This document shows positions 11,245 to 23,069 of a stretch of DNA of 64,000 bases, piece after piece. Both the position numbers and the translations under genes were made by a program. Source of the DNA: Actinoplanes sp. NBRC 103695 (lineage in GTDB: Bacteria > Actinomycetota > Actinomycetes > Mycobacteriales > Micromonosporaceae). The DNA is taken from positions 1 through 64,000 of the forward strand of contig NZ_BSTL01000019.1 of NCBI RefSeq assembly GCF_030269485.1, in the 5' to 3' direction. Under the pieces are notes generated by a model. The model saw only the letters and a program-made list of their open reading frames with translations, did no database searches and was not told the DNA's origin. The first letter of the stretch is position 1, and each line of letters opens with the position of its first letter.

Positions 11245-13908
11245 GTGAAGGTCCCACCGTTACAACACCGCCCTTGGGACGCCGGTCGGACGACCGCCCC
11301 GAAGGCGCGACAGGCCATGCCCCCGCGTGGGGCGGCTGAGTTGCTGCGGCTCCAGCGCGAGGCCGGTAACGCGGCGGTCAGCGGAGCACTCCAGCGCCAG
11401 CCCGCCGACAACAAGGCCGGCGACAACAAGCCCGCCGACAGCAAGGCCGGCGACGGTAAGGCCGGCGACGGCAAGCGGCCGGACTTCACGCAGGACAAGG
11501 TCACTCTCGCCAAAGAGGGCGTCATCCGGCGGGTGGTGCGCGGCCTCAAGTACGGGCTGAAGGGCGGCTACCAGTCCAAGTACGGCGACAAGGAGAGCTT
11601 CGAGCAGGAGAAGACCAGCGACCAGCATCCCGAGCACTCGGCGGTCGTGATCGTCCCCGACCGCAAGCTGGGCGCGGGACCGGTCCAGGTGATCCTGCAC
11701 TTCCACGGCTTCGGCTTCCGCAGCGGCGACCCCTACGCCGGCTACGCGGTGGCGAGCGGCGGCGGGGGCTCGAGCAAGAAGGCCGAGGGCACCACCCGCG
11801 ACTACGACCAGGAGCACTGGGAGCAGCAGGTCGGCGCCGTCGACAAGGAGCGGGCGGCGGCCACGACGCCGGGGCCGGCGGTCGTCACGATCCTCGTGCA
11901 GGGTCGCGGCAAGTCCGACTTCGGTGACGTGCCGACCTACGACTACATCGCGGACGTGTTCAGCAAGGTGCCGGAGCTCGCGGGCGTGACGAAGTACTCG
12001 CTGATCCATACCGCGCACAGCGGCGGCGGGTACAAGCTGCGGACCCACATCCAGGACGACGGCCAGGCCAAGACCAGCGACCGCGCCAAGCTTCCGGCCG
12101 CGAAGCCGGGCACGGCGGCGCCGATCCCGGCGGACATGGTGGTGATGTTCGACGCCGAGGCGATGCTGGACATCGTCAAGAAGGACAAGGACACCGGCAA
12201 GGAGATCAGCCGGACCCCGGCGGTCGCCTCGTGGGCCAAGTCGCATGTGCGGCGGCTCGACAAGGAGATCCGGGCCGCGCTGGCGGCGGGGCGGCCGGCC
12301 GACGCGCAGGCGGCGATCGACGCCACCCCGAAACTGCGGGCGTATTTCGCGCCGGGCGGGAGCTACGACGGCGCCTACCGGCAGGCGAACCGGGAGATCG
12401 GCGCGCTGATCGACCAGATTCCCGAGCCGTACGGGAACGGGGAATCTTCCGCGGTGACCGTTGCTGACCTGTTCCGGTTCGTGGCGGTGACCGGCACCAA
12501 GGTCACTCACGAGTTCGTGATCAGCAAGGGCACGGCGGGCAAGCCGGAGGACGGCGCGATGGCCGACGCGTTGCGCGCCTCGTCCGATCCGACCAGCGAC
12601 CGGAAACAGGCCATCGAACGGGACGTCAAGAAGGCGAGGACGCCCGCGCCGAAGCCGGCCCCCGCAGCACCGCAACCCGCGGCACCGGCGCAGACACCCG
12701 CTCCGCCGGCGCGGGCACCGGCCGCGGCGGCCAAGGCGCCCGCACCGGCCGCGGCGACACAGGCACCCGCACCCGCACCGGCCGTGGCTCCGGCAACGGC
12801 GGCCAAGGTGACGGCGGCCAAAGTGACGGCGAAGGGGTGGAGAGCCAGTGGCGCCACCGCGGACTACGAGCTGACCCAGGCGCAGCGGGACGACCTGGCC
12901 GCGCACACGCCCGAGCAGCGCGCCGCCGACATCGCCGACCTGAAGAGCAAGCAGGCGCGGCTCACCGAGCTGGCCAAGGCCGAGAAGGCGGCCGCCAAGC
13001 CGAAGGCGAAGACCGTGATGCCCGAGGCCGACGTCAAGGAACTGGCCGAGCTGCGGGTGCTGCAGAAGAAGGTCTTCGCCGCGTCGAGAGCTCTCAAGCA
13101 GACCGACGTCGAGGAGGTCCTCAAGGCGGCCGGACACACCGTCGACGGGTGGTACGGCGACGTCCAGAAGGGCACGTTCCTCAACGTCAACGTGCGCGTA
13201 CACAAGCATCTGGCCGCCGCCCTGCAGCGGGCCGAGGCCACCCTGGTGGCCGATGCCAAGACCAACCCGGAGAAGCTGGACGCGGTCGCCCTGGGCCAGA
13301 AGCTGGGCATGAGCCCGAGGGCCGCCGACATGCGCGTTCCCAAGCTGGCGGTGGGCGGCGACAGCATCAGCATGCACACGTTCGGCCTGGCGGTGGACCT
13401 GAACTACGCCGGCAACCCGTACCTGGGACTCAACGGCCGGACGGCGACGAGCGTGATCGTGCGGGCGAGCAGCCTGGTCAACAACGCGCCGGTGGACACC
13501 AAGACGTACCTCGGCGGCGCGAAGGAGGCGTACGACAAGATGGCCGGCGCCTCGCAGGCCCTGGCGACGTACCTGTCCTTCAAGGATCCGAAGAATGTGC
13601 AGGCCCTGAAGGACGCGATCGCGGCGCACACCCCGGCCAAGGGCGAGCCGGCCGACGAGGCGGGCTGGGTGAAGCAGATCGAGAAGGACCACAAGGCCAT
13701 CACGAAGAGCAAGGATTTCCGGAACCACACGTCGCCCGAGAAGGGCTTCATGAACTTCCCGGAGTCGGTCGTGATGGCCCTGGACGGCGCCGGGCTGAAA
13801 TGGGGCGGCACCTACGACGACACGAAGGACCTGATGCACTTCGACCTGCGTTCCGGCGAGGGCGCCAAGATCGACGCCGCTCGCCGGAAGGACAAGGCCG
13901 GCACCTAG
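11245..13908 (+). CDS. Large multidomain protein with M15-type peptidase C terminus, possible injection-system cargo
   Basis: An 887-residue protein. The N-terminal 'LLRLQREAGNAAVSGALQR' matches the 'LQ..AGN.AV' signature found at the head of many actinobacterial DUF4157 and contractile-injection-associated (eCIS) proteins. A charged Lys/Asp/Gly repeat follows (about residues 55-85), then an alpha/beta-hydrolase-like segment ('VILHFHGFGFRSGDP', 'HTAHSGGGYKLR'), an Ala/Pro-rich linker (about 465-530), and a C-terminal D-Ala-D-Ala carboxypeptidase (M15-like) region with 'SMHTFGLAVDLN' and 'LMHFDLR' supplying His/Asp/His zinc ligands. No signal peptide. GTG 11245 has GGAAGG nine bases upstream; ATG 11236 is the alternative. 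No eCIS structural genes are in the window. Convergent 4-bp overlap with the next gene. Confidence 0.65.
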   Translation: MKVPPLQHRPWDAGRTTAPKARQAMPPRGAAELLRLQREAGNAAVSGALQRQPADNKAGDNKPADSKAGDGKAGDGKRPDFTQDKVTLAKEGVIRRVVRGLKYGLKGGYQSKYGDKESFEQEKTSDQHPEHSAVVIVPDRKLGAGPVQVILHFHGFGFRSGDPYAGYAVASGGGGSSKKAEGTTRDYDQEHWEQQVGAVDKERAAATTPGPAVVTILVQGRGKSDFGDVPTYDYIADVFSKVPELAGVTKYSLIHTAHSGGGYKLRTHIQDDGQAKTSDRAKLPAAKPGTAAPIPADMVVMFDAEAMLDIVKKDKDTGKEISRTPAVASWAKSHVRRLDKEIRAALAAGRPADAQAAIDATPKLRAYFAPGGSYDGAYRQANREIGALIDQIPEPYGNGESSAVTVADLFRFVAVTGTKVTHEFVISKGTAGKPEDGAMADALRASSDPTSDRKQAIERDVKKARTPAPKPAPAAPQPAAPAQTPAPPARAPAAAAKAPAPAAATQAPAPAPAVAPATAAKVTAAKVTAKGWRASGATADYELTQAQRDDLAAHTPEQRAADIADLKSKQARLTELAKAEKAAAKPKAKTVMPEADVKELAELRVLQKKVFAASRALKQTDVEEVLKAAGHTVDGWYGDVQKGTFLNVNVRVHKHLAAALQRAEATLVADAKTNPEKLDAVALGQKLGMSPRAADMRVPKLAVGGDSISMHTFGLAVDLNYAGNPYLGLNGRTATSVIVRASSLVNNAPVDTKTYLGGAKEAYDKMAGASQALATYLSFKDPKNVQALKDAIAAHTPAKGEPADEAGWVKQIEKDHKAITKSKDFRNHTSPEKGFMNFPESVVMALDGAGLKWGGTYDDTKDLMHFDLRSGEGAKIDAARRKDKAGT

Positions 13909-14468
13909 GCCGGCGCCAACACCTGGGCCGGCGTCAGCGCGGCGACCAGCGGGATCTCGAAGTGCACGGTCCGCGAGCAGTCGGCGCCGCCGTCCCGCGG
14001 GTCGTGCACGAGGTCGGCCATGCTCCGCCAGAACGCCTCGGCGCCCGGCACCCGGGTGTCGGTGTGCAGGTAGATGTCGCGGTAGACCGGCTGCGCCGAG
14101 GCGAACTCGACGGCCCGCCGGACCAGGGCGCGGGCCAGGCCCCGGCGGCGGTGCTCGGGGCGGACGTACACCCGGAAGAGCTGGGCCGTCGTGGCCGCCG
14201 GATAGCGGTCGACCAGCCAGCGCGGGTGCGGCGGGTGGTTCGGGGCGGCGGCCCGCACGGCCGTGGTGGCCACCACCTCGCCACCCGTGACGGCGACGAA
14301 GAGCGCGTGGTGCGGCTGCCGCAGGTAGGTGCCTTCGAGGTCGATCACGTCGGCGTGCCAGTCCGGCCGGTAGCCGCAGTCGAACACCCGGTAGAACGTG
14401 TCGAGCATGACGCTGCGGGCGCCGTCCACGTCGTCCGGTCCGGCGATCCGCAGTTCGTAATCGGTCAT
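13905..14468 (-). CDS. GNAT N-acetyltransferase, last gene of the ATP-grasp operon
   Basis: A 187-residue GNAT protein with motif A 'VYVRPEHRRRGLARALVRRA' (about residues 98-117) and the second core strand region 'YLHTDTRVPGAEAFWRSM'. The ATG at 14468 overlaps the epimerase stop in an ATGA quartet (14465-14468), so it is the coupled fifth gene of the operon that starts at 18424. In context it may acetylate the pathway product or an intermediate, for self-protection or capping; that is inference. Confidence 0.8.
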   Translation of the reverse strand: MTDYELRIAGPDDVDGARSVMLDTFYRVFDCGYRPDWHADVIDLEGTYLRQPHHALFVAVTGGEVVATTAVRAAAPNHPPHPRWLVDRYPAATTAQLFRVYVRPEHRRRGLARALVRRAVEFASAQPVYRDIYLHTDTRVPGAEAFWRSMADLVHDPRDGGADCSRTVHFEIPLVAALTPAQVLAPA

Positions 14469-15376
14469 GGAACACTCACTTTCTCGAGGTCGACACCGAG
14501 CCCGGGCGAGCCGGTGAGCCGCAGGAATCCGTCGTGGCCGCCGATGCCGGTGTACGGGTCGCCGGCCAGCAGCAGGTGCCCGTCCAGGTCGACCCAGCGC
14601 GCCAGCCCGGCCAGGTGCACGGCCGGCGCGATGCCGAGCGTGCTCGCCACCAGGCAGCCGAGCATGATCTCCATCCCGGCGGCGCGGGCCTTCGTGGCGA
14701 GGCGCAGCGCGGGCGCGATCCCGCCGCACTTGGCGAGCTTGATGTTGATCCCGGCCACCGCGCCGGCGAGCCGGTCGACGTCGGCCTCGGTGGCGGCGTC
14801 CTCGTCGGCGACGATCGGCACGTCGGTGCGCTCGCTGATCCAGGCGAGGCGGGCGGGTGTGCCGGGCGGGATCGGCTGTTCCACCATCTCGATCCGGCAC
14901 CACGCGAGCTCGTCGAGCAGCCGCAGGGTCCGCGCCGGGGTCCAGCCGCCGTTGGGGTCGATCAGCAGCCGGGCCTCGGGCGCCGCTCGACGCACCGCGG
15001 CGATCCGCTCCGGGTCGTACTCGTCGCCCGCCTTGACCTTCAGCACACCGAAACCCGGCGGCACGTCGACAAGAGCGGGATCGACCAGACCGATGGTGTA
15101 CGCGGTGGCGACCGGCGTCGGGTCCGGCAGGCCGAGGAGCCGATGAACGGGCACCCCGGCCCGCTTGCCGCGCAGGTCGTGCAGGGCGGCGTCGTACGCG
15201 GCCCGGACACCGGCTTCCATCCCGAGGTAGACGCTGGAGACGACTTCGCCGTGCCCGGTCATCCCATCGTCATCCGTCACGGTGACCCGCATGGCGTCCC
15301 GCCCGGCCATCGTCGACCGGGAGATCCGCAGCGGCGTCCGCAATCGCAGCCGGTAGGACACCCAGGACACCTTCAT
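14465..15376 (-). CDS. Dipeptide epimerase (enolase superfamily)
   Basis: A 303-residue member of the mandelate racemase/muconate-lactonizing subgroup, closest in layout to L-Ala-D/L-Glu epimerases. The barrel motifs are present: 'GVLKVKAG' with the KxK catalytic lysines, 'LLIDPNGGW' (metal Asp), 'EMVEQPI' (metal Glu), 'IVADEDA' (metal Asp) and 'INIKLAKCGG' with the second catalytic Lys. It would epimerise an alpha-carbon of a dipeptide or N-acyl amino acid. Positioned between a cysteine-synthase-like enzyme and a GNAT, with ATGA overlaps on both sides, so it most likely acts on the product of the operon's ATP-grasp ligase. Substrate unproven. Confidence 0.85.
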   Translation of the reverse strand: MKVSWVSYRLRLRTPLRISRSTMAGRDAMRVTVTDDDGMTGHGEVVSSVYLGMEAGVRAAYDAALHDLRGKRAGVPVHRLLGLPDPTPVATAYTIGLVDPALVDVPPGFGVLKVKAGDEYDPERIAAVRRAAPEARLLIDPNGGWTPARTLRLLDELAWCRIEMVEQPIPPGTPARLAWISERTDVPIVADEDAATEADVDRLAGAVAGINIKLAKCGGIAPALRLATKARAAGMEIMLGCLVASTLGIAPAVHLAGLARWVDLDGHLLLAGDPYTGIGGHDGFLRLTGSPGLGVDLEKVSVP

Positions 15377-16410
15377 GCGGGCACCGGCGCGACCACGGTC
15401 GTGCAGCGGCTCCACCGGGTCACCTCGACCGCGCGCGGATGCGGGATCTCCACCGGATGCCCGCGCCCGGAGCCGAGCAGCCCGCGTTCCGCGCACCAGT
15501 CGTCGTCGAAGATCGTGTCCAGGTATCGGTGCGGACCGTCCGGGAAGACCGTGACCACCCGCGCGCCGGGCCGGGTCCGCGCGATCCACGCCGACACCCG
15601 GGCCACCGCGCCGGTGCTCCACCCGCCGGTGACGAACGCGGACCGCGCCAGCCGCCGGCAGCTCTCCACCGCCTCGGCCGGCCCGACCCAGTGCACCTCG
15701 TCGAACGCGTCGTAGTCGACGTTCGACGGGTAGACGCTGCTGCCCAGGCCGCGCATCAGCCGGGGGCGCGCCGGTTGCCCGAAGATCGTCGACCCGACCG
15801 TGTCCACCCCGACCAGCCGCAGCCGCGGCCAGTGCCGGCGCAGCGCCCGGGCCAGCCCGCCGCTGTGCCCGCCGGTGCCGACGCTGCACACCAGCACATC
15901 CGCCTCGTCGAGCTGGGCGGCCACCTCGTCGGCGAGTCCCGCGTACCCGGTCAGGTTGTCCGGGTTGTGGTACTGGTCCGGCCAGTACCCGCCCGGCAGC
16001 GCGGCGAGCACCTCGGCCAGCCGGTCCCGCCGCGCCTGCTGCCAGCCGCCGGTCGGATGCGGCCGGTCGACGATCTCCAGCCGCGCGCCGTACGCCCGCA
16101 GCAGCCCCCGCATCGACGGTTCCAGCTCACGGTCCACGACCAGCACCACCGGGTGCCCGAGTGCCTGCCCCGCGAAGGCCAGCCCGACGCCGAGCGTGCC
16201 ACTGGTCGACTCGACGACGGGAGCGCCGGGGCGCAGCTCACGCCGGGCCCGCGCGCCGGTCAGCATGGCCACCGCCGCGCGTGCCTTCATGCCTCCCGGC
16301 GCGGCGCACTCGACCTTGGCCCAGAAGCCGGGGTGCGGATATGGCAGCGGCGCGTCGACGAACACGACAGGCGTGTTGCCGACGAGGTTCAGCAGCTGCG
16401 GGGCGGTCAC
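15373..16410 (-). CDS. PLP-dependent cysteine synthase-like enzyme
   Basis: A 345-residue fold-type II PLP enzyme. 'LVGNTPVVFVD' opens the family, the Schiff-base lysine is K42 in 'GGMKARAAVAML', the phosphate loop is 'VCSVGTGGHSGG', and 'ESTSGTLGVGLA' is the substrate loop. The SKDR segment of true cysteine synthases is replaced by 'GGMKARA', so a different nucleophile or amino-acid donor is likely; SbnA-type enzymes, for example, make an N-substituted 2,3-diaminopropionate. Coupled by ATGA overlaps to both neighbours. Best inference: it builds the non-proteinogenic amino acid used by the ATP-grasp ligase. Confidence 0.85.
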   Translation of the reverse strand: MTAPQLLNLVGNTPVVFVDAPLPYPHPGFWAKVECAAPGGMKARAAVAMLTGARARRELRPGAPVVESTSGTLGVGLAFAGQALGHPVVLVVDRELEPSMRGLLRAYGARLEIVDRPHPTGGWQQARRDRLAEVLAALPGGYWPDQYHNPDNLTGYAGLADEVAAQLDEADVLVCSVGTGGHSGGLARALRRHWPRLRLVGVDTVGSTIFGQPARPRLMRGLGSSVYPSNVDYDAFDEVHWVGPAEAVESCRRLARSAFVTGGWSTGAVARVSAWIARTRPGARVVTVFPDGPHRYLDTIFDDDWCAERGLLGSGRGHPVEIPHPRAVEVTRWSRCTTVVAPVPA

Positions 16411-17192
16411 GCCGGCACCCCGTACCGGAAGATCGTGGTCGGTCCGCCGTCCAGCCAGAAGAACGGGTAGGGCTCGGCGGACACCGCGGACAGGCCGGCG
16501 CCGCGGAACCGGGGCAGGATGGCGCTGCCGGTCTGCGCGAACGTCACGAACGGTTTGCCGGTGGCGGCGGCATGCTCACGCAGCGGTTCGAACGTGCCGT
16601 TACCGAGGGTCATGCCGGAGGCGAGGATCGCGTCGCAGCGGTCGATCAGCGCGGTCGCGTCGGGCAGGTGCGGCTCGCCCCACTCGGTCTCGCCACCCGC
16701 GTAGTCGCAGGGCAGGTAGCGCCAGCCGCGCTCGCGGAGGCGTTCGAGCAGCGAGTTCACCACGCCGACGACCAGGACCGTGCGGCCGCCGGGCTCCGGG
16801 AGCAGGTCGATCACCGCGGCCGCGCGCCGGCGGGACTTCGCGAGCGAGGAGCCGCCGGGCACGGTCACCGCGGCGTCCGCGGCCTCGGCGTGCGGTCGCG
16901 CGTTCATCAGGTACGCGTCCAGCGCGGCAACGCGGACCGGCTGTGCCGGGTGCGCCAAGAGCTCCTTCACGGGTACGCCCACACAGTCGTACGCGAGGTC
17001 GTCGCCGAACTCGCCCGGTTCCACCGCGCACGAGCCGACCGCGGCGCCGACCCGGAGGCTGAGCACGTGGTTGCGGTAGCCGCGGCCCCGTCCGGTGTGC
17101 CGCGCGCCCTGCCGCGTGACGAAGGCGACGCTCACCTGGTGTTCCTCGGGATCGGTCAGCGCCTCGGCGAGGAGCACGTCCATGGTCGTCAT
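16407..17192 (-). CDS. Rossmann-like DUF364-type protein
   Basis: A 261-residue protein with a mid-region nucleotide- or metal-binding alpha/beta domain: 'VLVVGVVNSLLERLRERGW' (about residues 139-157), 'CDAILASGMTLGNGTFEPL' and 'PFVTFAQTGSAILPRF' match the DUF364 'putative heavy-metal chelation' layout. The N-terminal half carries 'SCAVEPGEFGDDLAYDCVG'. Second gene of the operon, overlapping the ATP-grasp stop by 4 bp (17189-17192). DUF364 proteins have no settled activity; presence beside amino-acid ligase genes under a Fur/Zur-like operator is consistent with a metallophore pathway. Confidence 0.75.
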   Translation of the reverse strand: MTTMDVLLAEALTDPEEHQVSVAFVTRQGARHTGRGRGYRNHVLSLRVGAAVGSCAVEPGEFGDDLAYDCVGVPVKELLAHPAQPVRVAALDAYLMNARPHAEAADAAVTVPGGSSLAKSRRRAAAVIDLLPEPGGRTVLVVGVVNSLLERLRERGWRYLPCDYAGGETEWGEPHLPDATALIDRCDAILASGMTLGNGTFEPLREHAAATGKPFVTFAQTGSAILPRFRGAGLSAVSAEPYPFFWLDGGPTTIFRYGVPA

Positions 17193-18424
17193 GCGGCGTA
17201 CCGGACCTCTGCCTCGGCGGCCAGCGTGCCGGCGGTGGCTCGGGCCGCGCCGGGCTTCTCGTCGACCACCATCACGTAGCCCAGGTAGTCGTTGTTGCTG
17301 CTCGCGTCGCCCGCGCGGTGGCCGGGCCCGCACAGCGACCAGTCCACGATCCGGTCGTCGTCGGGCCATCGCCGGATCGACTCGACGGTGCCCGCCCTCG
17401 GCGGCAGCACGAACGCGACGGCGGCGCTGCCCACGCCGGTGTCCGCCCGGGACAGGTCGGGGGTCTCGCCGAGGGCCAGCTGCGCGTACACCATGGGCAG
17501 GTCGATCCCGGTGACGCGGCGGACCAGCTCGGTGATCTGGTTGCCCGCCGGGCGCGGATTCACCTCCACGACCTTCGGCCCGTCGTCGGTCAGCCGCAGC
17601 TCGGTGTGCGCCACGCCCTGGTCGAAGCCGACCGCCTCCAGGGCGGCCACCGCCGTCTTCTCCGCGGCCGCGCCGTCCAGGTCGGCCGGGAACATGTGGC
17701 CGGTCTCCACGAAACCGGTCGCGCCGCCCAGCGACTTGTCGGTCACCCCGATCACCGTCGTCACCCCGTCCACGGTGACCGTCTCGACGCTGACCTCCGG
17801 GCCGGTCAGCAGTTCCTCCAGCAGCACCGCGGGCACCCGGGGCTGCCGCCGCGCGTTCACCGGGAAGCCGGCCACCGCGTCGAACGCCCCGCGCAGCTCG
17901 GCCTGGTCGGTCACCCGGCGGACGTACATGCCGGCGCACAGGTCGACCGGCTTGAGCACCAGCGGGAACCCGAGCCGGTCGGCCGCGCGGGACACCTCGG
18001 TCCAGCCCTCGGCCAGGGCGAACGCGGGCTGCGGCACGCCGGCCCGGTCCATCGCCTGGCGGGACAGATCCTTCCGGTACGCCGTACGCACCGCATCGGG
18101 GTCTCCACCCGGCAGGCCCAGCCGGGCCGCCAGCAGCGCGACCGTCTCGAGGTAGTAGTCGCACGACGTGAGCACCCCGTCGAACGGGATCGCGCCGTGC
18201 AGCCGGGTCACGTGCTCGAGCAGCGCCGGGACGTCGTTGGTCTCGGCGGTCAGCAGGTTGCGCGCGGCGAGCAGCGGGTGGCCGCCACCGGCCGGCGCGT
18301 CCCGCAGGTAGTGGTGCGGATCCCGGGTCAGGAACGAGAACCCGTGCCCCGCCTCGAGAACGGCCCTCGGGAGCAGCCGGCCCATCGCGCCGACCCAGCT
18401 CTCCACCAGCAACACATGCGCCAT
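17189..18424 (-). CDS. ATP-grasp ligase, first gene of a five-gene operon
   Basis: A 411-residue ATP-grasp enzyme, expected to form an amide bond through an acyl-phosphate. The N-terminal pre-ATP domain covers residues 1-105; the ATP-binding half has 'LGFPLVLKPVDLCAGMYVRR' and 'VLLEELLTGPEVSVETVTVDG', and the Mg-binding motif is 'KVVEVNPRPAGNQITELV' (about residues 294-311). This matches L-amino-acid-ligase/carnosine-synthase-type proteins rather than a purine or peptidoglycan enzyme. It starts at ATG 18424, with GGGG and GGAG just upstream, and leads genes each joined by 4-bp overlaps. A Fur/Zur-like dyad lies 29 bp before the start. Confidence 0.85.
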   Translation of the reverse strand: MAHVLLVESWVGAMGRLLPRAVLEAGHGFSFLTRDPHHYLRDAPAGGGHPLLAARNLLTAETNDVPALLEHVTRLHGAIPFDGVLTSCDYYLETVALLAARLGLPGGDPDAVRTAYRKDLSRQAMDRAGVPQPAFALAEGWTEVSRAADRLGFPLVLKPVDLCAGMYVRRVTDQAELRGAFDAVAGFPVNARRQPRVPAVLLEELLTGPEVSVETVTVDGVTTVIGVTDKSLGGATGFVETGHMFPADLDGAAAEKTAVAALEAVGFDQGVAHTELRLTDDGPKVVEVNPRPAGNQITELVRRVTGIDLPMVYAQLALGETPDLSRADTGVGSAAVAFVLPPRAGTVESIRRWPDDDRIVDWSLCGPGHRAGDASSNNDYLGYVMVVDEKPGAARATAGTLAAEAEVRYAA

Positions 18425-18452
18425 CTCCGGACCCCTTTGCTAGTTGGCCCGG

Positions 18453-18473
18453 TGATGATAACCGTTTCCATTA
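18453..18473 (-). promoter_or_regulatory. Fur/Zur-family-like operator in front of the ATP-grasp operon
   Basis: A 21-bp A/T-rich imperfect dyad in GC-rich surroundings. On the plus strand the left half is TGATGATAAC and the right half GTTTCCATTA, separated by one C; 7 of 10 symmetric positions pair. The 'TGATaAaC-N-GTTTtCATTA' style resembles actinobacterial Zur boxes. It ends 29 bp from the ATP-grasp start codon, and its minus-strand sequence contains a TATCAT -10-like hexamer, a position suited to zinc-dependent repression. Assignment to Zur rather than Fur or another family is inference. Confidence 0.5.
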
Positions 18474-18574
18474 GGTTTGATGGACGCCAGGGTTCCCCGG
18501 CGCGCGTTCCACCCAGGACATGACCGGGCGGACGACCAGAGTGGTCGCCGCGAAGATCCCCGCGATCACCCTGA

Positions 18575-18604
18575 GGCCTGCGGCGGACGTCCCCGCCGCA
18601 GGCC
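18575..18604 (-). terminator. Strong hairpin between the peptide genes and the ATP-grasp operon
   Basis: Perfect 12-bp arms GGCCTGCGGCGG (18575-18586) and CCGCCGCAGGCC (18593-18604) around a 6-nt loop, beginning 9 nt after the stop of the second peptide gene. There is no T-tract, as is common for actinomycete terminators. It could end most peptide transcripts and let a fraction read on, which would give a high peptide-to-enzyme ratio. Confidence 0.6.
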
Positions 18605-18612
18605 CCGCTCCC

Positions 18613-18669
18613 TCAGCCGCCGAGCAGCGCGGCGACGAGCTTCGCCATCTGGACCAGGTGACTCTCCAT
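18613..18669 (-). CDS. Small peptide gene, paralogue 2 (18 aa)
   Basis: Encodes MESHLVQMAKLVAALLGG, with a textbook AAGGAGG eight bases before the ATG and a TGA stop, so translation is well supported despite the length. It is a paralogue of the peptide gene 29 bp upstream: 10 of 18 positions are identical, the length is identical, and both share KLVAA, two bulky hydrophobics and a terminal GG. The peptide would be an amphipathic helix with a flexible Gly-Gly end. Position between a SARP regulator and an ATP-grasp/PLP/epimerase operon suggests a modified-peptide precursor or a secreted signal; either is inference. No family known to me. Confidence 0.6.
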   Translation of the reverse strand: MESHLVQMAKLVAALLGG

Positions 18670-18698
18670 CACGACCTCCTTCTCTCCTCGGTCCTTCC

Positions 18699-18755
18699 TC
18701 AGCCGCCGAAGAACGCGGCGACGAGCTTCACGACCTCGACCACGTGGGTATGCAT
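18699..18755 (-). CDS. Small peptide gene, paralogue 1 (18 aa)
   Basis: Encodes MHTHVVEVVKLVAAFFGG, ending in TGA. An in-frame ATG at 18764 would add three residues (MNA). No good Shine-Dalgarno sequence precedes either start, in contrast to its paralogue. A hairpin (18771-18787) lies just upstream and may be part of the leader. The conserved core and terminal GG shared with the second peptide, at identical length and with substitutions that keep hydrophobicity (LL for FF, MA for VV), indicate selection on the peptide rather than chance ORFs. It lies 93 bp after the SARP gene stop on the same strand. Confidence 0.5.
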   Translation of the reverse strand: MHTHVVEVVKLVAAFFGG

Positions 18756-18770
18756 GGCATTCATTGGACC

Positions 18771-18822
18771 GGGCGGCGGCGCCGCCCATCGATGCCATTC
18801 GACGAGCGCCGAAAGGCTCGTC
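18771..18822 (-). terminator. Two hairpins between the SARP gene and the peptide genes
   Basis: GACGAGC (18801-18807) pairs with GCTCGTC (18816-18822) around an 8-nt loop 27 bp after the SARP stop, a plausible terminator. A second dyad, GGGCGGC-GGC-GCCGCCC (18771-18787), follows it and immediately precedes the first peptide start. Together they would separate regulator and peptide transcripts or attenuate read-through. Confidence 0.45.
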
Positions 18823-18848
18823 TGGTCCGGTCGAAGCCGGGCGCCGCC

Positions 18849-21800
18849 TCAGTTCGCCAGGGCGCGCAGGACGTCGGCGACCGGGCCCTGATCGACGAGG
18901 GCGCTGCCCGCCGCCCGCTCCCCCGCCGCCGGCGCCAGCAGGTCGGCCAGCCGTGCCATCGCGGCCCGGTCGCCACCGGCGATCGCCGCCCGCGCCTGGA
19001 AGCACAGCCGCGCCTCCAGCATGGCGTCGGCGGTGGCGGGCCGATCGAGACGAAGGTCCACGCCCGGCATCTCGGCGTGTCCCCCTTTGCTCTGCTTACC
19101 TGCACGAATGCTCTGCTTACCTGCACGAATGCTCTGCTTACCTGCACGAAGCGCCCGGTATCCGGCCGTGAACACGCCGACGAGCGGGATCCGGAACTCC
19201 TCGGCGAGCCGGTCGGCGGCCTCCGCGTGACGGTCCGCTCCCGCGAAGTCGTCCAGGGCAGCCTGGGTCTGGATCAGCAGCAGGTGACCGAGCACGCGAT
19301 AGCTGACCAGCCCGTGCCGCTCGGCCAGTTCCAGCAGCTCACCACCGATCTGCGCCCGCGTGGAAGCCAGCCCCGCCCGGTGGAAGGTCTGCAGGAAGAG
19401 CCCGTTCAGCGCATAGGCGAGCAGCGCCGGATCACCGAGCCCGCGCGCCAGCCGCACCGCCTCGTCCGCCGCCTCGCGCGCCGCCGCCCCGCCCTGGTTG
19501 CGCAGCTCCATCGCGATGGTGGCCAGCAACCGGCACCGATCCTCCCGAACGCGACGCGACCGCTCCCCATTCGACCCCGGCGACCGCTCCCCGCCCGACC
19601 CCGGCGACCGCTCGCCGCCCGACCCCGACGGACGTTCCTCGTCCGTGCCTGACGACCAGCCCTCGCCACGCCTCGGCGAGGGCTCCTCGTCCGACTCCGG
19701 CGACCGCACCTCGTCCACACCGGGCGAGCGTTCCATGTCGAGGTGTGGCGAGCGCAGGGCTTCGGCGGCCGCGGCGGCGATCTGGCGGGCCAGCGCGGGA
19801 TCGTCGCTCGCGGCCCAGCTCGCCGGCACGTCGAACGCGCAGATCACCCGGGTGGTCAGCGCCGCGTCGCCCGCCGCCAGCTCGATCGCCGCCCCGCGCA
19901 GCCGGCGGGCTTCGCCGAGCTCGCCGGTGACCGCGAGAGACCGGGCCAACCCCATGATCAACTCCGCTCGGGTACGGGCGGAAGCACCGCCCCCGTGCCG
20001 CAGCGCGGTCCGCCACCACCGCACGGCCCGATGCGGCTCGAAGCGACGTTCGGCCTGCTCAGCCGCCACCCGAGCGGCATCCGCGGCAGCGACCCTCGCG
20101 GCGACCGCATCGGAACCCGCGGCCGTGGGATCGGGGCTTGCGGCGAGGTCCAGGTGATGGGCGAGTGCTTCCACGTCGTCTGGCCGGAGCCTTCGGACCG
20201 CCGCGGCCGCCTCGGCGTGCCAGGCCGCCCGGCGGGTTCGCGACAGGCCCTCGTAGACGGCGTCCCGCACGAGCGCGTGCGCGAAACGGAACCGCCCGGC
20301 CTCGATCTCCTCGACGAACCCGCGCTCGACAGCCGACTCGATCGCGTCGAACACCTCGCCGCCGGCACGGAGCCCCTCGCCAGGGAGGAGAGCCAGGTCG
20401 AACTCGGGGCCGAGGATCGCGGCGCGACGGACCACGTCGTGGGTGCGGGCGGGCAGCTGGGCCAGGCGGTGGCGCACCACGTCGCGGACCCCGTGCGGGA
20501 CGCCGGCGACACCGGCCGGAATCCCGGGCACGACACCGCCCGGAACACCCGGCACGACACCGCCCGGAACACCCGGCACGACACCGCCCGGAACACCCGG
20601 CACGACACCGCCCGGAACACCCGGCACGACACCGCCCGGAACACCCGGCACGGCACCGCCCGGAACACCCGGCGTCGCACCGCCCGGAACACCCGGCACG
20701 GCACCGGCCGGAACAGCCGGGACGGTGGGTGGAACATCAGGGACGGCGGGTGGGACGGTGTCGACGAGGCGGGCGAGTTCGCGCACGTAGAAGGGGTTGC
20801 CTCCGGAACGCTCCTGGATCGCCTCGGCGGTGAGCTCGTCCACGTCGCGGCCGAGCGTCGCGCGTACCAGAGCATGGGTTTCGGGCCGGGACAGACCGCT
20901 CAGGGTGAGGCGCAGGGGGTCGGCCTTCGCCAGGCGGCTGAGCAGGGCGTGTGGCGGGTCGGTCGAGCGGTGGGTGGCTACGAGCAGGATCGGGGCGGCC
21001 AGCGGCGGGTCGGTGAGGTGCTCGATCAGCGCGAGGGTTCCGGGGTCGGCGGCGTGCAGGTCTTCGGCGACGATGACCAGCGGCTCCAGGCGGGCCAGGC
21101 CGGCCAGGTGATCGGCCACGGCGCGGCGCCAGCGGGCCTGGGCGGTCGCGGGGTCGCCGGTGGGGCTGGGGACGCCGAAATCCGACGGGTTGCGGTACCA
21201 GAGTGTCCGGTGGTTCCGGGCGAACTCCGCCACCAGGGCCGTCTTGCCGATGCCGGGCTCGCCGCTGACCAGCGCCAGCCCGAGATGGTTGCGGGTGACC
21301 ACCGCGGCCTCGAGGGCTGCCAGAGCGTCATCCCGCCCGATCAAGGAACGACCGGCCGAGGAACGCCCGGCCAAGGAACGCCCGGTCGAGGACGGGCCGA
21401 TCGGGTGACGGCCGGCCTGCGGGGATGTCAGCGCGGGAGCGTGACGCAGGACGTCCGTCTCCAGCTGGCGCAGCGCGGGACCGGGGTCGACGCCCAGCTC
21501 GTCCGCCAGCAACTCGCGGGCCTCGCGGAGGACGGCCAAGGCGTCGCCCTGCCGGCCGCTCCGGTAGAGGGCCAGTGCCAGCAGGCGGCGGGCCTCCTCC
21601 CGGAGCGGATGCTGCTTGACCAGGGCTTCGAGGTCGGGAACGGCTTCGGCGGCGCGGCCCTGGCCGAGCATCGCCTCGGCGCGGAGCTGGACGGCCAGGA
21701 GGTGGAGCTCGTCCAGGCGGTCGATCTCGGCGCGTGCCCACGGCTGGTCGGCCACCTCGGCGTAGGCGGGACCGCGCCACAGATCCAGCGCCTGGTCGAG

Positions 21801-22145
21801 GGCGGCACCCGAGCGGACGTGCTCCTCGAAGCGCCATGCGTCCACGGCGTCGGGAGGCAGGCGCAGGGCGTACCCGGAACCCTCGGTGACGAGCAGGCGC
21901 GGCGGCGTACGCGGCAGACGGTTTGGCTCGAGAGACCGGCGCAACGCGCCGACGAAAGTCTGCACCGCGCCTGCCGCGCGCTCCGGCGGGACGGCCCACA
22001 GGTCGTTGATCAGCGTCTCGGCGGGCACGACGCGGCCGCGGGCGATCAGCAGCCGGGCCAGCACCGCCCGGTGGCGCGGCCCCTTGAGGTCCACCGGCCC
22101 GGTCGCGTCCTCGGCCAGCAGCGGACCGAGCACCCCGAACCGCAC
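18849..22145 (-). CDS. AfsR/SARP-type transcriptional regulator with ATPase domain
   Basis: A 1098-residue regulator. The N-terminal OmpR-like winged helix (about 1-90, 'FGVLGPLLAEDATG', 'GSGYALRLPPDAVDAWRFE') precedes the bacterial transcriptional activator domain (about 95-245, 'RRLLALALYRSGRQGDALAV'). An AAA/NACHT-like ATPase has Walker A 'GEPGIGKTAL' (K301) and Walker B 'PLVIVAEDLHAADPGTLALI'. TPR-like helices follow. Three in-frame tandem-repeat tracts interrupt it, described separately. The start is the GTG at 22145 by family alignment; the open frame extends further upstream. SARPs usually switch on the adjacent biosynthetic cluster, here the small peptides and ATP-grasp operon on the same strand. 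C-terminal helices are intact to the TGA. Confidence 0.85.
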   Translation of the reverse strand: MRFGVLGPLLAEDATGPVDLKGPRHRAVLARLLIARGRVVPAETLINDLWAVPPERAAGAVQTFVGALRRSLEPNRLPRTPPRLLVTEGSGYALRLPPDAVDAWRFEEHVRSGAALDQALDLWRGPAYAEVADQPWARAEIDRLDELHLLAVQLRAEAMLGQGRAAEAVPDLEALVKQHPLREEARRLLALALYRSGRQGDALAVLREARELLADELGVDPGPALRQLETDVLRHAPALTSPQAGRHPIGPSSTGRSLAGRSSAGRSLIGRDDALAALEAAVVTRNHLGLALVSGEPGIGKTALVAEFARNHRTLWYRNPSDFGVPSPTGDPATAQARWRRAVADHLAGLARLEPLVIVAEDLHAADPGTLALIEHLTDPPLAAPILLVATHRSTDPPHALLSRLAKADPLRLTLSGLSRPETHALVRATLGRDVDELTAEAIQERSGGNPFYVRELARLVDTVPPAVPDVPPTVPAVPAGAVPGVPGGATPGVPGGAVPGVPGGVVPGVPGGVVPGVPGGVVPGVPGGVVPGVPGGVVPGIPAGVAGVPHGVRDVVRHRLAQLPARTHDVVRRAAILGPEFDLALLPGEGLRAGGEVFDAIESAVERGFVEEIEAGRFRFAHALVRDAVYEGLSRTRRAAWHAEAAAAVRRLRPDDVEALAHHLDLAASPDPTAAGSDAVAARVAAADAARVAAEQAERRFEPHRAVRWWRTALRHGGGASARTRAELIMGLARSLAVTGELGEARRLRGAAIELAAGDAALTTRVICAFDVPASWAASDDPALARQIAAAAAEALRSPHLDMERSPGVDEVRSPESDEEPSPRRGEGWSSGTDEERPSGSGGERSPGSGGERSPGSNGERSRRVREDRCRLLATIAMELRNQGGAAAREAADEAVRLARGLGDPALLAYALNGLFLQTFHRAGLASTRAQIGGELLELAERHGLVSYRVLGHLLLIQTQAALDDFAGADRHAEAADRLAEEFRIPLVGVFTAGYRALRAGKQSIRAGKQSIRAGKQSKGGHAEMPGVDLRLDRPATADAMLEARLCFQARAAIAGGDRAAMARLADLLAPAAGERAAGSALVDQGPVADVLRALAN
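19088..19150. repeat. Three perfect 21-bp tandem repeats in the SARP gene
   Basis: Exact copies at 19088-19108, 19109-19129 and 19130-19150, each encoding the heptad AGKQSIR (the last ends in K) in the SARP reading frame. The 21-bp period keeps the frame. Copies are identical at the nucleotide level, so expansion is recent. Confidence 0.9.
19558..19660. repeat. Imperfect Gly/Ser/Glu/Arg repeats in the SARP gene
   Basis: Near-identical 24-bp units encode 'GERSPGSG'-type octads in the SARP frame, followed towards the upstream side by related Glu/Ser/Pro/Asp-rich units (about 19660-19740). This is a charged low-complexity linker between TPR-like helices. Confidence 0.7.
20529..20720. repeat. 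Eight 24-bp tandem repeats encoding VPGVPGG-type units in the SARP gene
   Basis: Five identical 24-bp copies (from 20529) and three with one to three changes encode an elastin/collagen-like Val-Pro-Gly repeat (about residues 476-539), directly after the ATPase domain. Copy number is a multiple of three bases, so it can vary without breaking the frame. Confidence 0.9.
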
Positions 22146-22199
22146 CCGCCCACCGTAACGCTGATCGGTTGCTGATCGGGCGGGGGCACTCTGGCCGCC

Positions 22200-23069
22200 A
22201 TGCAGATCCCCGGTTTCGAGTATCAACGCGTCCTCGTCGAGGACGACGTCGCCCTGCACGTGGCGGTCGGCGGTTCCGGGCCGCCGATCGTGCTGCTGCA
22301 CGGTTTTCCGCAGACCCACCTGATGTGGCGGCACGTGGCCGCCGACCTGGCCGCGGACCATACGGTGATCTGTCCTGATCTGCGCGGATACGGCGAGAGT
22401 GACAAGCCGGCCGGCGGCTACTCGAAGCGGCGGATGGCCGCGGACGTGGTCACGCTGGCGGCGGCGCTCGGGCACGACCGGTTCGCGCTCGCCGGGCACG
22501 ACCGCGGCGCCCTGGTCGCCTTCCGCGCCGGCCTGGACCATCCGGACGTGATCACCCGTCTGACCCTGCTCGACATCGTCCCGACGCTGGACATGTGGGA
22601 CGTGCTGCAGGGCGTCCGGGCGGCGATCGGGTTCCACCTGTTCCTGATGGCGCAGCCGCCGGGCCTGCCGGAGACCATGATCGGCGCGGCGCCGGACGCC
22701 TTCTTCGGTTATTTCCTGGACGCCTGGACGAACGATCCGGCCGCGATCCCGCCGGACGTCCGCGCCCGGTACCTGGCGGCGTCGGCCGCGGCGGTCCCGT
22801 CGATCGTCGCCGACTACCGCGCCTCGGCCACCGAGGACGTCGACGACGACACCGCCACCCGGGCGGCGGGAGGCGTGCTGACCATGCCGGTGACCGTGCT
22901 TCAGCAGGACTGGGGTGCGCAGCTCGGCTACGACGCCGCGGCCGTCTGGCGACCGTGGGCGCCGCGGCTGGACCACCGGCTCGTCACATGCGGCCACTTC
23001 ATGGCCGAGGAAGCGCCACAGGATGTGGTCAAAGCCCTCCGAGGTTCCGACAATCGTCGGAAGATCTGA
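22200..23069 (+). CDS. Alpha/beta hydrolase, haloacetate dehalogenase/epoxide hydrolase-like
   Basis: A 289-residue hydrolase. 'IVLLHGFPQTHLMWRHVA' contains the HGFP oxyanion loop, 'DLRGYGESDKP' the second loop, and 'LAGHDRGALVAFR' the nucleophile elbow with Asp as nucleophile (GHDRG), as in fluoroacetate dehalogenases and epoxide hydrolases. The C-terminal catalytic His is in 'VTCGHFMAEEAPQ'. The cap domain is helical (about residues 135-215). Divergent from the SARP gene, with only 54 bp between starts. Substrate unknown; haloalkanoate or epoxide. Confidence 0.82.
   Translation: MQIPGFEYQRVLVEDDVALHVAVGGSGPPIVLLHGFPQTHLMWRHVAADLAADHTVICPDLRGYGESDKPAGGYSKRRMAADVVTLAAALGHDRFALAGHDRGALVAFRAGLDHPDVITRLTLLDIVPTLDMWDVLQGVRAAIGFHLFLMAQPPGLPETMIGAAPDAFFGYFLDAWTNDPAAIPPDVRARYLAASAAAVPSIVADYRASATEDVDDDTATRAAGGVLTMPVTVLQQDWGAQLGYDAAAVWRPWAPRLDHRLVTCGHFMAEEAPQDVVKALRGSDNRRKI

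What the first reader, a model, noticed from the sequence alone, without database searches (positions are those of the whole stretch)
13905..22145. SARP regulator, two 18-residue peptides and an ATP-grasp/PLP/epimerase operon: a candidate undescribed biosynthetic system
All genes lie on one strand. An AfsR-like SARP is followed by two tandem 18-aa peptide genes, a strong hairpin, a Fur/Zur-like operator and then ATP-grasp, DUF364-like, cysteine-synthase-like, dipeptide epimerase and GNAT genes, each joined by 4-bp ATGA overlaps. The combination predicts a metal-responsive small peptide-like product from a non-proteinogenic amino acid, with epimerisation and acetylation. I know no described pathway with this exact set together with the peptides.
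Basis: partly seen in the sequence, partly recalled or inferred. Interest (0 to 1): 0.85.

Follow-up and report, generated by a model that had tools for sequence, protein, structure and literature searches.

The report
Reduced zinc-controlled metal-chelator gene cluster
The five-gene operon looks like a cut-down copy of a widespread actinobacterial gene cluster that carries a zinc-sensor type switch and probably makes a small zinc-grabbing molecule by an undescribed route, while the neighbouring regulator and the two tiny peptides do not seem to belong to it.

Summary
In detail: on the minus strand lie a SARP regulator, two tandem 18-codon ORFs, a perfect 12-bp hairpin, a Zur-type operator, then ATP-grasp, DUF364, SbnA/CysK-like, MR/MLE-epimerase and GNAT genes joined by 4-bp overlaps. 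The grouping is not borne out. SARP relatives pair with a divergent hydrolase in 11 of 12 congeneric loci, none with the operon; no relative of the peptides was found in 267 fetched loci or 353 other family genomes. The operon is a reduced copy of a conserved cluster: ATP-grasp, DUF364, PLP enzyme, epimerase, MFS exporter, methyltransferase, Opp-type ABC importer, sometimes GNAT. The published actinobacterial Zur motif (11 or more of 15 positions) lies upstream in 94 of 95 loci, and similar sites precede two ZnuA operons of the same genome. A second branch keeps DUF364 plus PLP enzyme, mostly with GHMP kinase and FecBCD importer, also boxed. Best reading: a Zur-repressed pathway to a small zincophore without NRPS or nicotianamine synthase. 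The window copy lacks the transport genes and its epimerase carries in-frame deletions, so it may be altered or dying. Product and catalytic steps are inferred. The library searched showed no description.

The parts
17189..18424 (-). ATP-grasp ligase (L-amino-acid-ligase type, LAL_C2 domain), first gene of the operon
   Evidence: PF13535 63.1 bits, PF18603 LAL_C2 45.7 bits (cut-off 29.4); best solved relative by sequence is L-amino acid ligase BL00235 (3vot, 2.1e-24)
16407..17192 (-). DUF364 (PF04016) protein, unknown chemistry; shared by both cluster branches
   Evidence: 32.6 bits (cut-off 23); model pLDDT 89.7, best fold matches 3l5o and 3npg (DUF364 structures)
15373..16410 (-). PLP enzyme of the SbnA/CysK group (beta-substitution on a serine derivative, inferred)
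   Evidence: best solved match SbnA (1.2e-43); NCBIfam SbnA family 254.9 bits, below its cut-off of 349.95
14465..15376 (-). MR/MLE-type (dipeptide) epimerase with in-frame deletions of about 34 and 6 residues
   Evidence: 303 aa against aligned stretches of 324-358 in 80 relatives with complete hits
13905..14468 (-). GNAT acetyltransferase; in relatives that have one it mostly follows the ABC importer genes
18453..18473 (-). Zur-type operator, 28 bp before the ATP-grasp start codon
   Evidence: 13 of 15 informative positions of the published motif; next best in the 64-kb window is 10
18575..18604 (-). perfect 12-bp hairpin after the second peptide ORF and before the operator; terminator-like but without a T tract
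18699..18755 (-). peptide ORF 1 (18 aa; 21 aa from the ATG at 18764); judged not part of the operon
18613..18669 (-). peptide ORF 2 (18 aa) with good SD; judged not part of the operon
18849..22145 (-). SARP-type regulator (BTAD, AAA); judged not part of the operon
22200..23069 (+). alpha/beta-hydrolase (name recalled from its sequence, no family search made), conserved divergent partner of the SARP; outside the operon
   Evidence: 70-78% identical beside the SARP homologue in 11 of 12 congeneric loci

Best explanation
The five genes are a reduced copy of a Zur-repressed biosynthetic cluster for a small metal-binding compound, most likely a zincophore. Shown here: gene order, conservation, operator motif, transport genes in relatives. 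Inferred: when zinc is scarce, Zur leaves the operator. The PLP enzyme replaces the leaving group of O-phospho-L-serine or O-acetyl-L-serine with an amine to give an N-(2-amino-2-carboxyethyl)-amino acid; DUF364 carries out the next, unknown core step; the ATP-grasp ligase joins an amino acid; the epimerase inverts one centre; GNAT and/or methyltransferase cap it; in complete clusters an MFS pump exports it and an Opp-type ABC importer recovers the metal complex. The window copy has the core and the GNAT only, with a deleted epimerase, so it makes an altered product handled by other transporters, or is decaying. SARP and peptides are neighbours, set apart by a hairpin.
For: Conserved cluster: of 97 non-redundant branch A loci (107 examined; 5 duplicates and 5 without ATP-grasp set aside), 89 have at least 9.5 kb after the ATP-grasp; DUF364 and SbnA-like are in 89 of 89, epimerase in 86, MFS in 85, SBP in 83, the set without requiring methyltransferase in 80. 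Operator: published actinobacterial Zur motif at 11 or more of 15 positions upstream of ATP-grasp in 94 of 95 loci, against 1 of 475 shuffles and 13 of 473 random 400-bp pieces of the same loci, some of which may contain the site. Own genome: exact 15-mer matches at only 3 places, one just before a ZnuA operon; a one-mismatch site lies before the likely start of a second ZnuA gene. Same DUF364+PLP core in a second branch, mostly with GHMP kinase and FecBCD importer, also boxed. P0003 keeps SbnA K47, S75, R132, Y152 (read by eye). MFS + Opp-type import matches the pattern of racemase-containing opine zincophore clusters.
Against: No product is known; no enzyme of the set has been assayed here. 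The window copy has no exporter or importer beside it and the genome has only distant MFS (best 3e-7) and SBP (25-33% identical) relatives. Its epimerase lost about 34 plus 6 residues and departs at 10 of 112 conserved columns, second only to L111 with 23 among 86. SbnA's third O-phosphoserine residue, S185, is Gly here. Zur control rests on motif matches; Fur-family boxes resemble each other. An ad hoc 15-mer scan had more background: 81 of 95 loci against 12 of 288 control pieces. In the second sample the position of the box relative to the gene was measured for the 9 branch A loci only; for branch B I compared it with annotated genes in L112, L113 and L115 only. In L104 the box lies inside the longest ORF; the likelier start codon about 30 bp downstream is my inference.
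Confidence: 0.7

Rival explanations
1. One reading: one system in which the SARP controls peptides and operon, the peptides ending in GG being substrate or scaffold of the ATP-grasp enzyme (a peptide-scaffold pathway).
For: Adjacency and same strand; two genuinely related peptide ORFs with C-terminal GG beside an ATP-grasp gene.
Against: No such ORF in the fetched relatives; no match in 66 other congeneric genomes; in 353 other family genomes only 9 weak hits (E 0.005-0.08) inside frames of 424-734 codons; hairpin and own operator separate them; SARP relatives keep a hydrolase partner instead.
Confidence: 0.03
2. The window copy is a non-functional remnant of a horizontally acquired zincophore cluster.
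For: Loss of six genes present in its nearest relatives L034, L035, L036, L038; epimerase deletions; only one other congeneric genome had a strong DUF364 match in the family sample, and the window's copy groups with four genomes of another genus.
Against: All five frames are open and overlap by 4 bp; conserved columns nearly intact in ATP-grasp (2 of 154 changed), DUF364 (0 of 78), SbnA-like (3 of 164), GNAT (0 of 68); NG86 dN/dS 0.22-0.35 for ATP-grasp, DUF364 and SbnA-like in pairs with the window; epimerase 0.42-0.48, but 0.46-0.51 also in two pairs without the window; GNAT not computed. The operator is kept.
Confidence: 0.3
3. A metallophore for another metal (iron, nickel, cobalt) under a different Fur-family repressor.
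For: Fur-family boxes resemble each other; the importers are of types used for nickel (Opp/Nik, recalled) and for siderophores (FecBCD; annotated as iron transporters).
Against: Boxes match the published Zur motif and the ZnuA sites of the same genome; no iron-box match above 13 of 19 in the five branch B loci scanned (the iron-box consensus was recalled).
Confidence: 0.12
4. Not a chelator: a zinc-starvation-induced antimetabolite dipeptide with an ABC system for peptides.
For: ATP-grasp plus dipeptide epimerase is a dipeptide-making set (L-amino-acid and bacilysin-type ligases among the matches).
Against: The DUF364+PLP core recurs with FecBCD, a siderophore-type importer, in other Zur-boxed clusters; MFS plus importer in one operon fits a scavenging cycle.
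Confidence: 0.1

Closest known systems
Opine-like zincophores (staphylopine, bacillopaline)
   Same: Small non-NRPS zinc chelators; racemase type paired with MFS export and dipeptide/oligopeptide-type import, others with FecCD import; extra methyl- or acetyltransferases in some (PMC7438024, passages seen).
   Different: No nicotianamine synthase (CntL) or opine dehydrogenase (CntM) among the five operon proteins or among the listed genes of L110, L111 (those gene tables are incomplete); ATP-grasp, DUF364 and PLP enzyme instead.
[S,S]-EDDS / aminopolycarboxylic-acid metallophores
   Same: Zur-controlled zincophore of an actinomycete made without NRPS (PMC6103462 and PMC4993170, passages); a cysteine-synthase-like enzyme is part of such a cluster (PMC13206832, passage on one Rhodococcus cluster).
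   Different: That cluster carries ornithine cyclodeaminase and diaminopimelate decarboxylase genes; none is in the window operon or among the listed genes of L110, L111. The EDDS paper itself is not held.
SbnA (staphyloferrin B)
   Same: Closest solved relative; PLP Lys47, Ser75, Arg132, Tyr152 conserved.
   Different: S185 is Gly; no SbnB in the operon; score below the family cut-off.
Coelibactin
   Same: Zur-controlled zincophore cluster of Streptomyces (PMC5472717, passages).
   Different: NRPS product (recalled); no NRPS in this operon.
DUF364 proteins 3l5o, 3npg
   Same: Same family by profile (3npg) and fold by model (both); the authors of 3l5o's paper proposed a role near heavy-metal chelation (PMC2954201, passages).
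   Different: Only 13-17% identical; from Desulfitobacterium and Pyrococcus.

Membership tests
Zur regulon (actinobacterial) | Zur-box in the promoter | tested here: met
   13 of 15 positions in the window; 94 of 95 relatives at 11 or more
Zur regulon (actinobacterial) | Binding by Zur and zinc-dependent repression | not testable with these tools
   needs EMSA/ChIP and expression data
Opine-like zincophore | CntL and CntM homologues | tested here: not met
   none among the five operon proteins nor among the listed genes of L110, L111 (tables incomplete)
Opine-like zincophore | MFS exporter with Opp-type or FecCD importer | tested here: inconclusive
   met in most relatives (80 of 89 long loci), not met in the window
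Aminopolycarboxylate (EDDS-type) cluster | SbnA-like enzyme with ornithine cyclodeaminase and decarboxylase | tested here: not met
   only the SbnA-like enzyme present (cluster content from one passage)
SbnA (TIGR03945) | score above curated cut-off | tested here: not met
   254.9 bits against 349.95
SbnA (TIGR03945) | Arg132, Tyr152, Ser185 for O-phosphoserine | tested here: inconclusive
   Arg and Tyr conserved, Ser replaced by Gly
DUF364 (PF04016) | gathering score and fold | tested here: met
   32.6 bits against 23; fold match to 3l5o, TM 0.60
L-amino acid ligase (ATP-grasp) | ATP-grasp plus LAL C-terminal domain | tested here: met
   PF13535 and PF18603 above cut-off; substrate untested
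MR/MLE dipeptide epimerase | intact capping and barrel domains | tested here: not met
   barrel present, N-terminal domain short of about 34 residues
RiPP / peptide-scaffold pathway | precursor peptide conserved with the modifying genes | tested here: not met
AfsR (NF053617) | score above curated cut-off | tested here: not met
   165.6 bits against 1430; a BTAD-AAA SARP-type protein, not AfsR itself

The most novel reading that the evidence does not exclude
A DUF364 protein plus an SbnA-like PLP enzyme is the core of a previously undescribed class of Zur-controlled zincophore pathways in Actinomycetes; the DUF364 marker is in 29 of 393 other genomes sampled across the class. The class has at least two branches: A (ATP-grasp, epimerase, methyltransferase, Opp-type import) and B (mostly GHMP kinase and FecBCD import). 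This would give DUF364 an enzymatic role, as a step in making a chelating aminocarboxylate.
Probability: 0.55. Interest if true: 0.78.

Novelty: new variant of a known kind. Interest (0 to 1): 0.62.

Why it matters
To my knowledge few zincophore pathways are known, and those use NRPSs, nicotianamine-synthase-like enzymes or EDDS-type enzymes. A common, Zur-boxed pathway with a different enzyme set would add a class of metal scavengers, suggest a function for DUF364, and point to how many Streptomyces, Micromonospora, Embleya and Rhodococcus strains may take up zinc. The marker pair DUF364 + PLP enzyme makes the class easy to mine. The window shows how such a cluster can shrink.

Tried and rejected
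Peptides as part of the operon: rejected. Peptides as part of the SARP system: not supported either; no related ORF after 12 SARP homologues. A conservation test for translation of the two ORFs was weak (P 0.10-0.19). AfsR: score far below cut-off. Defence system: no PADLOC hit for the six proteins. An intrinsic terminator or sigma-70 promoter by consensus scan: none found. Iron control of five branch B loci: no good iron box. The third exact operator match of the genome, before an aldehyde dehydrogenase (C48), is unexplained. One of 29 second-sample loci (L256, 12.5 kb, cut by its contig end) has no box. Loci other than the window that lack parts of the cluster: L033, L047, L049, L124, L125 (runs of N), L142, L161, L164, L165, L191, L196; 8 more were too short to judge. 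Weak same-genus DUF364 hits (G158, G198, G220; E 1.7e-6 to 8e-4) were not followed. Peptide query against plasmids: no match. Prevalence by the ATP-grasp at E 1e-60 is low in the phylum sample (3 of 395 other genomes), lower than for DUF364 in the class sample (29 of 393); the first counts branch A only.
Full report
Setting. The window is part of a 10.8-Mb, 180-contig assembly. The genus is probably Actinoplanes: the congeneric contig G126:C25 (179,793 bases) has the length of Actinoplanes aureus NZ_JADQTO010000022.1 in the named collection; this is an inference.

What is there. The five operon proteins are an ATP-grasp ligase with the L-amino-acid-ligase C-terminal domain, a DUF364 protein, a PLP enzyme closest to SbnA among solved structures, an MR/MLE epimerase and a GNAT. 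They overlap by 4 bp each (three ATGA, one GTGA). The two peptide ORFs are real paralogues, but translation is unproven.

The SARP is a neighbour. A 240-residue piece of it finds relatives at E 1e-20 in 12 of 66 other genomes of the genus. In 11 of these 12 loci (not L094) the divergent hydrolase of window 22200-23069 is also there, 70-78% identical; none of the 12 fetched stretches (7.6-9.5 kb) holds an operon gene, and none has a related peptide after the SARP.

The peptides are local. They match nothing at E 1 in the other 66 genomes of the genus. With the two-row alignment, 9 of 353 other family genomes give E 0.005-0.08, all inside frames of 424-734 codons, so chance. No plasmid match. 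The best stop-anchored 18-mer in 267 other fetched loci scores 22, the two peptides against each other 55. A perfect 12-bp hairpin lies between peptide 2 and the operon's operator.

The operon has relatives. In 300 family genomes 24 have a DUF364 match, own genome included, 21 of them at E 1e-50 or better. I fetched 20 neighbourhoods of 20 kb: 16 of 20 have ATP-grasp, DUF364, SbnA-like and epimerase in this order. Pfam on two of them showed what follows: an MFS protein, a methyltransferase, an SBP_bac_5 binding protein, permeases and an ABC ATPase. Plasmid relatives in Streptomyces angustmyceticus and Rhodococcus sp. ZPP show the same annotated order. Over 107 loci the canonical order dominates. 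After removal of 5 duplicates and 5 loci without ATP-grasp, 97 remain; 80 of the 89 long enough to judge have the core, MFS, SBP, both permeases and ATPase. GNAT is seen in 18 of 89, the window included; many loci end before its usual place. The window is the only one of 107 with epimerase followed directly by GNAT.

The window copy is derived. On a 93-taxon tree of ATP-grasp+DUF364+SbnA-like, the window groups with L034, L035, L036, L038 (support 0.997), four genomes of another genus, none of them among the loci lacking transport genes. So the transport block and the methyltransferase were lost. The own genome has no close MFS or SBP relative elsewhere; the methyltransferase was not searched for. 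The epimerase has lost about 34 residues of the N-terminal domain and 6 more; the aligned stretch is 324-358 aa in 80 relatives with complete hits, the window protein 303 aa. The other four proteins keep nearly all conserved columns.

The operator is of Zur type. Choi et al. (PMC5472717, passages seen) cite a 21-bp actinobacterial Zur motif, taaTGaNAANNNTTNtCANta, and give a 7-1-7 motif for S. coelicolor. With its 15 informative positions, the window's best site is 18453-18473 with 13; the next best in 64 kb is 10. Upstream of the ATP-grasp 94 of 95 loci have 11 or more (L050 has 10); shuffled upstream regions 1 of 475; random pieces of the same loci 13 of 473. An earlier scan with a consensus drawn from these loci themselves gave 81 of 95 at 11 or more of 15, control 12 of 288. 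L130 (too short upstream) and L125 (runs of N) are left out of the 95. In the own genome a 15-mer pattern has exact matches at 3 places: the operon, 35 bp before a ZnuA gene, and before an aldehyde dehydrogenase; one of the one-mismatch sites lies before the likely start of a second ZnuA gene. The pattern gave 83 strand-wise matches, its backward control 35, so many one-mismatch sites are chance.

A second branch. Distant DUF364 relatives (38-41% identical) lie with a PLP enzyme and a GHMP kinase (L112, L115) or an MFS protein (L113), beside a FecBCD-type importer. These three and L051, L052 have Zur-type boxes of 11-13; in L112, L113 and L115 the best box lies between annotated genes. In 394 genomes across the class, 29 besides the own have a DUF364 match at 1e-20. 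I fetched all 29 neighbourhoods: 9 are branch A; of the other 20, 15 have a GHMP kinase relative, 15 at least one FecBCD-type relative, and two (L257, L260) a third arrangement, MT-PLP-DUF364-MFS. 28 of 29 hold a box of 11 or more, against none in 175 kb of control; 1 of 34 shuffled loci reached 11.

Mechanism. Transport set, repressor motif and import types mirror the two kinds of opine zincophore clusters described in PMC7438024 (passages). The PLP enzyme keeps SbnA Lys47, Ser75, Arg132, Tyr152 but not Ser185 (read by eye; residue roles from PMC12414870 passages). SbnA makes N-(2-amino-2-carboxyethyl)-L-glutamate from O-phospho-L-serine and glutamate (same source). I therefore infer a related aminocarboxylate, ligated by the ATP-grasp, epimerised and capped. 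DUF364 is modelled well (pLDDT 89.7) and matches only the two DUF364 structures convincingly; the authors of one suggested condensation or hydrolysis near metal chelation (PMC2954201 passages). Its reaction remains unknown.

Novelty. The listings of ten full-text searches showed no paper tying this gene set to a metallophore. Seven papers hold the term DUF364; I opened only PMC2954201, which makes a genome-context remark about rare-metal transport and chelation. Most subscription journals and preprints are not in the library, so I cannot say that it is unpublished. Papers were seen as passages only.

Noticed in passing
L112, L113, L115, L051, L052 and the 20 loci without ATP-grasp among L253-L272: DUF364 + PLP enzyme, mostly with GHMP kinase and FecBCD-type importer, nearly all with a Zur-type box in the locus; in the annotated records the importer is labelled an iron transporter.
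   Followed up: partly
L257, L260: A third arrangement, methyltransferase-PLP-DUF364-MFS (in L260 with an Opp-type importer before it), with Zur-type boxes.
   Followed up: no
own genome C38:69893 and C3:221940 (L102, L104): Two separate ZnuA-type importer genes, each followed by an ABC ATPase gene, with boxes like the operon's.
   Followed up: yes
own genome C48:31985 (L103): Exact operator match about 200 bp before an aldehyde dehydrogenase gene; unexplained.
   Followed up: partly
window 18849-23069: SARP and divergent hydrolase form a conserved pair in the genus (11 of 12 SARP loci).
   Followed up: yes
window about 20530-20720 and 19090-19150: In-frame repeats inside the SARP: a PGVPGGVV-type run and three GKQSIRA-type units (seen in the translation).
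   Followed up: no
L033 (8641-11260): Another reduced cluster: ATP-grasp, DUF364 and a match to only the first 136 residues of the PLP enzyme.
   Followed up: no
window 14465-15376: Epimerase with in-frame loss of about 34 and 6 residues, the shortest of 81 compared.
   Followed up: yes
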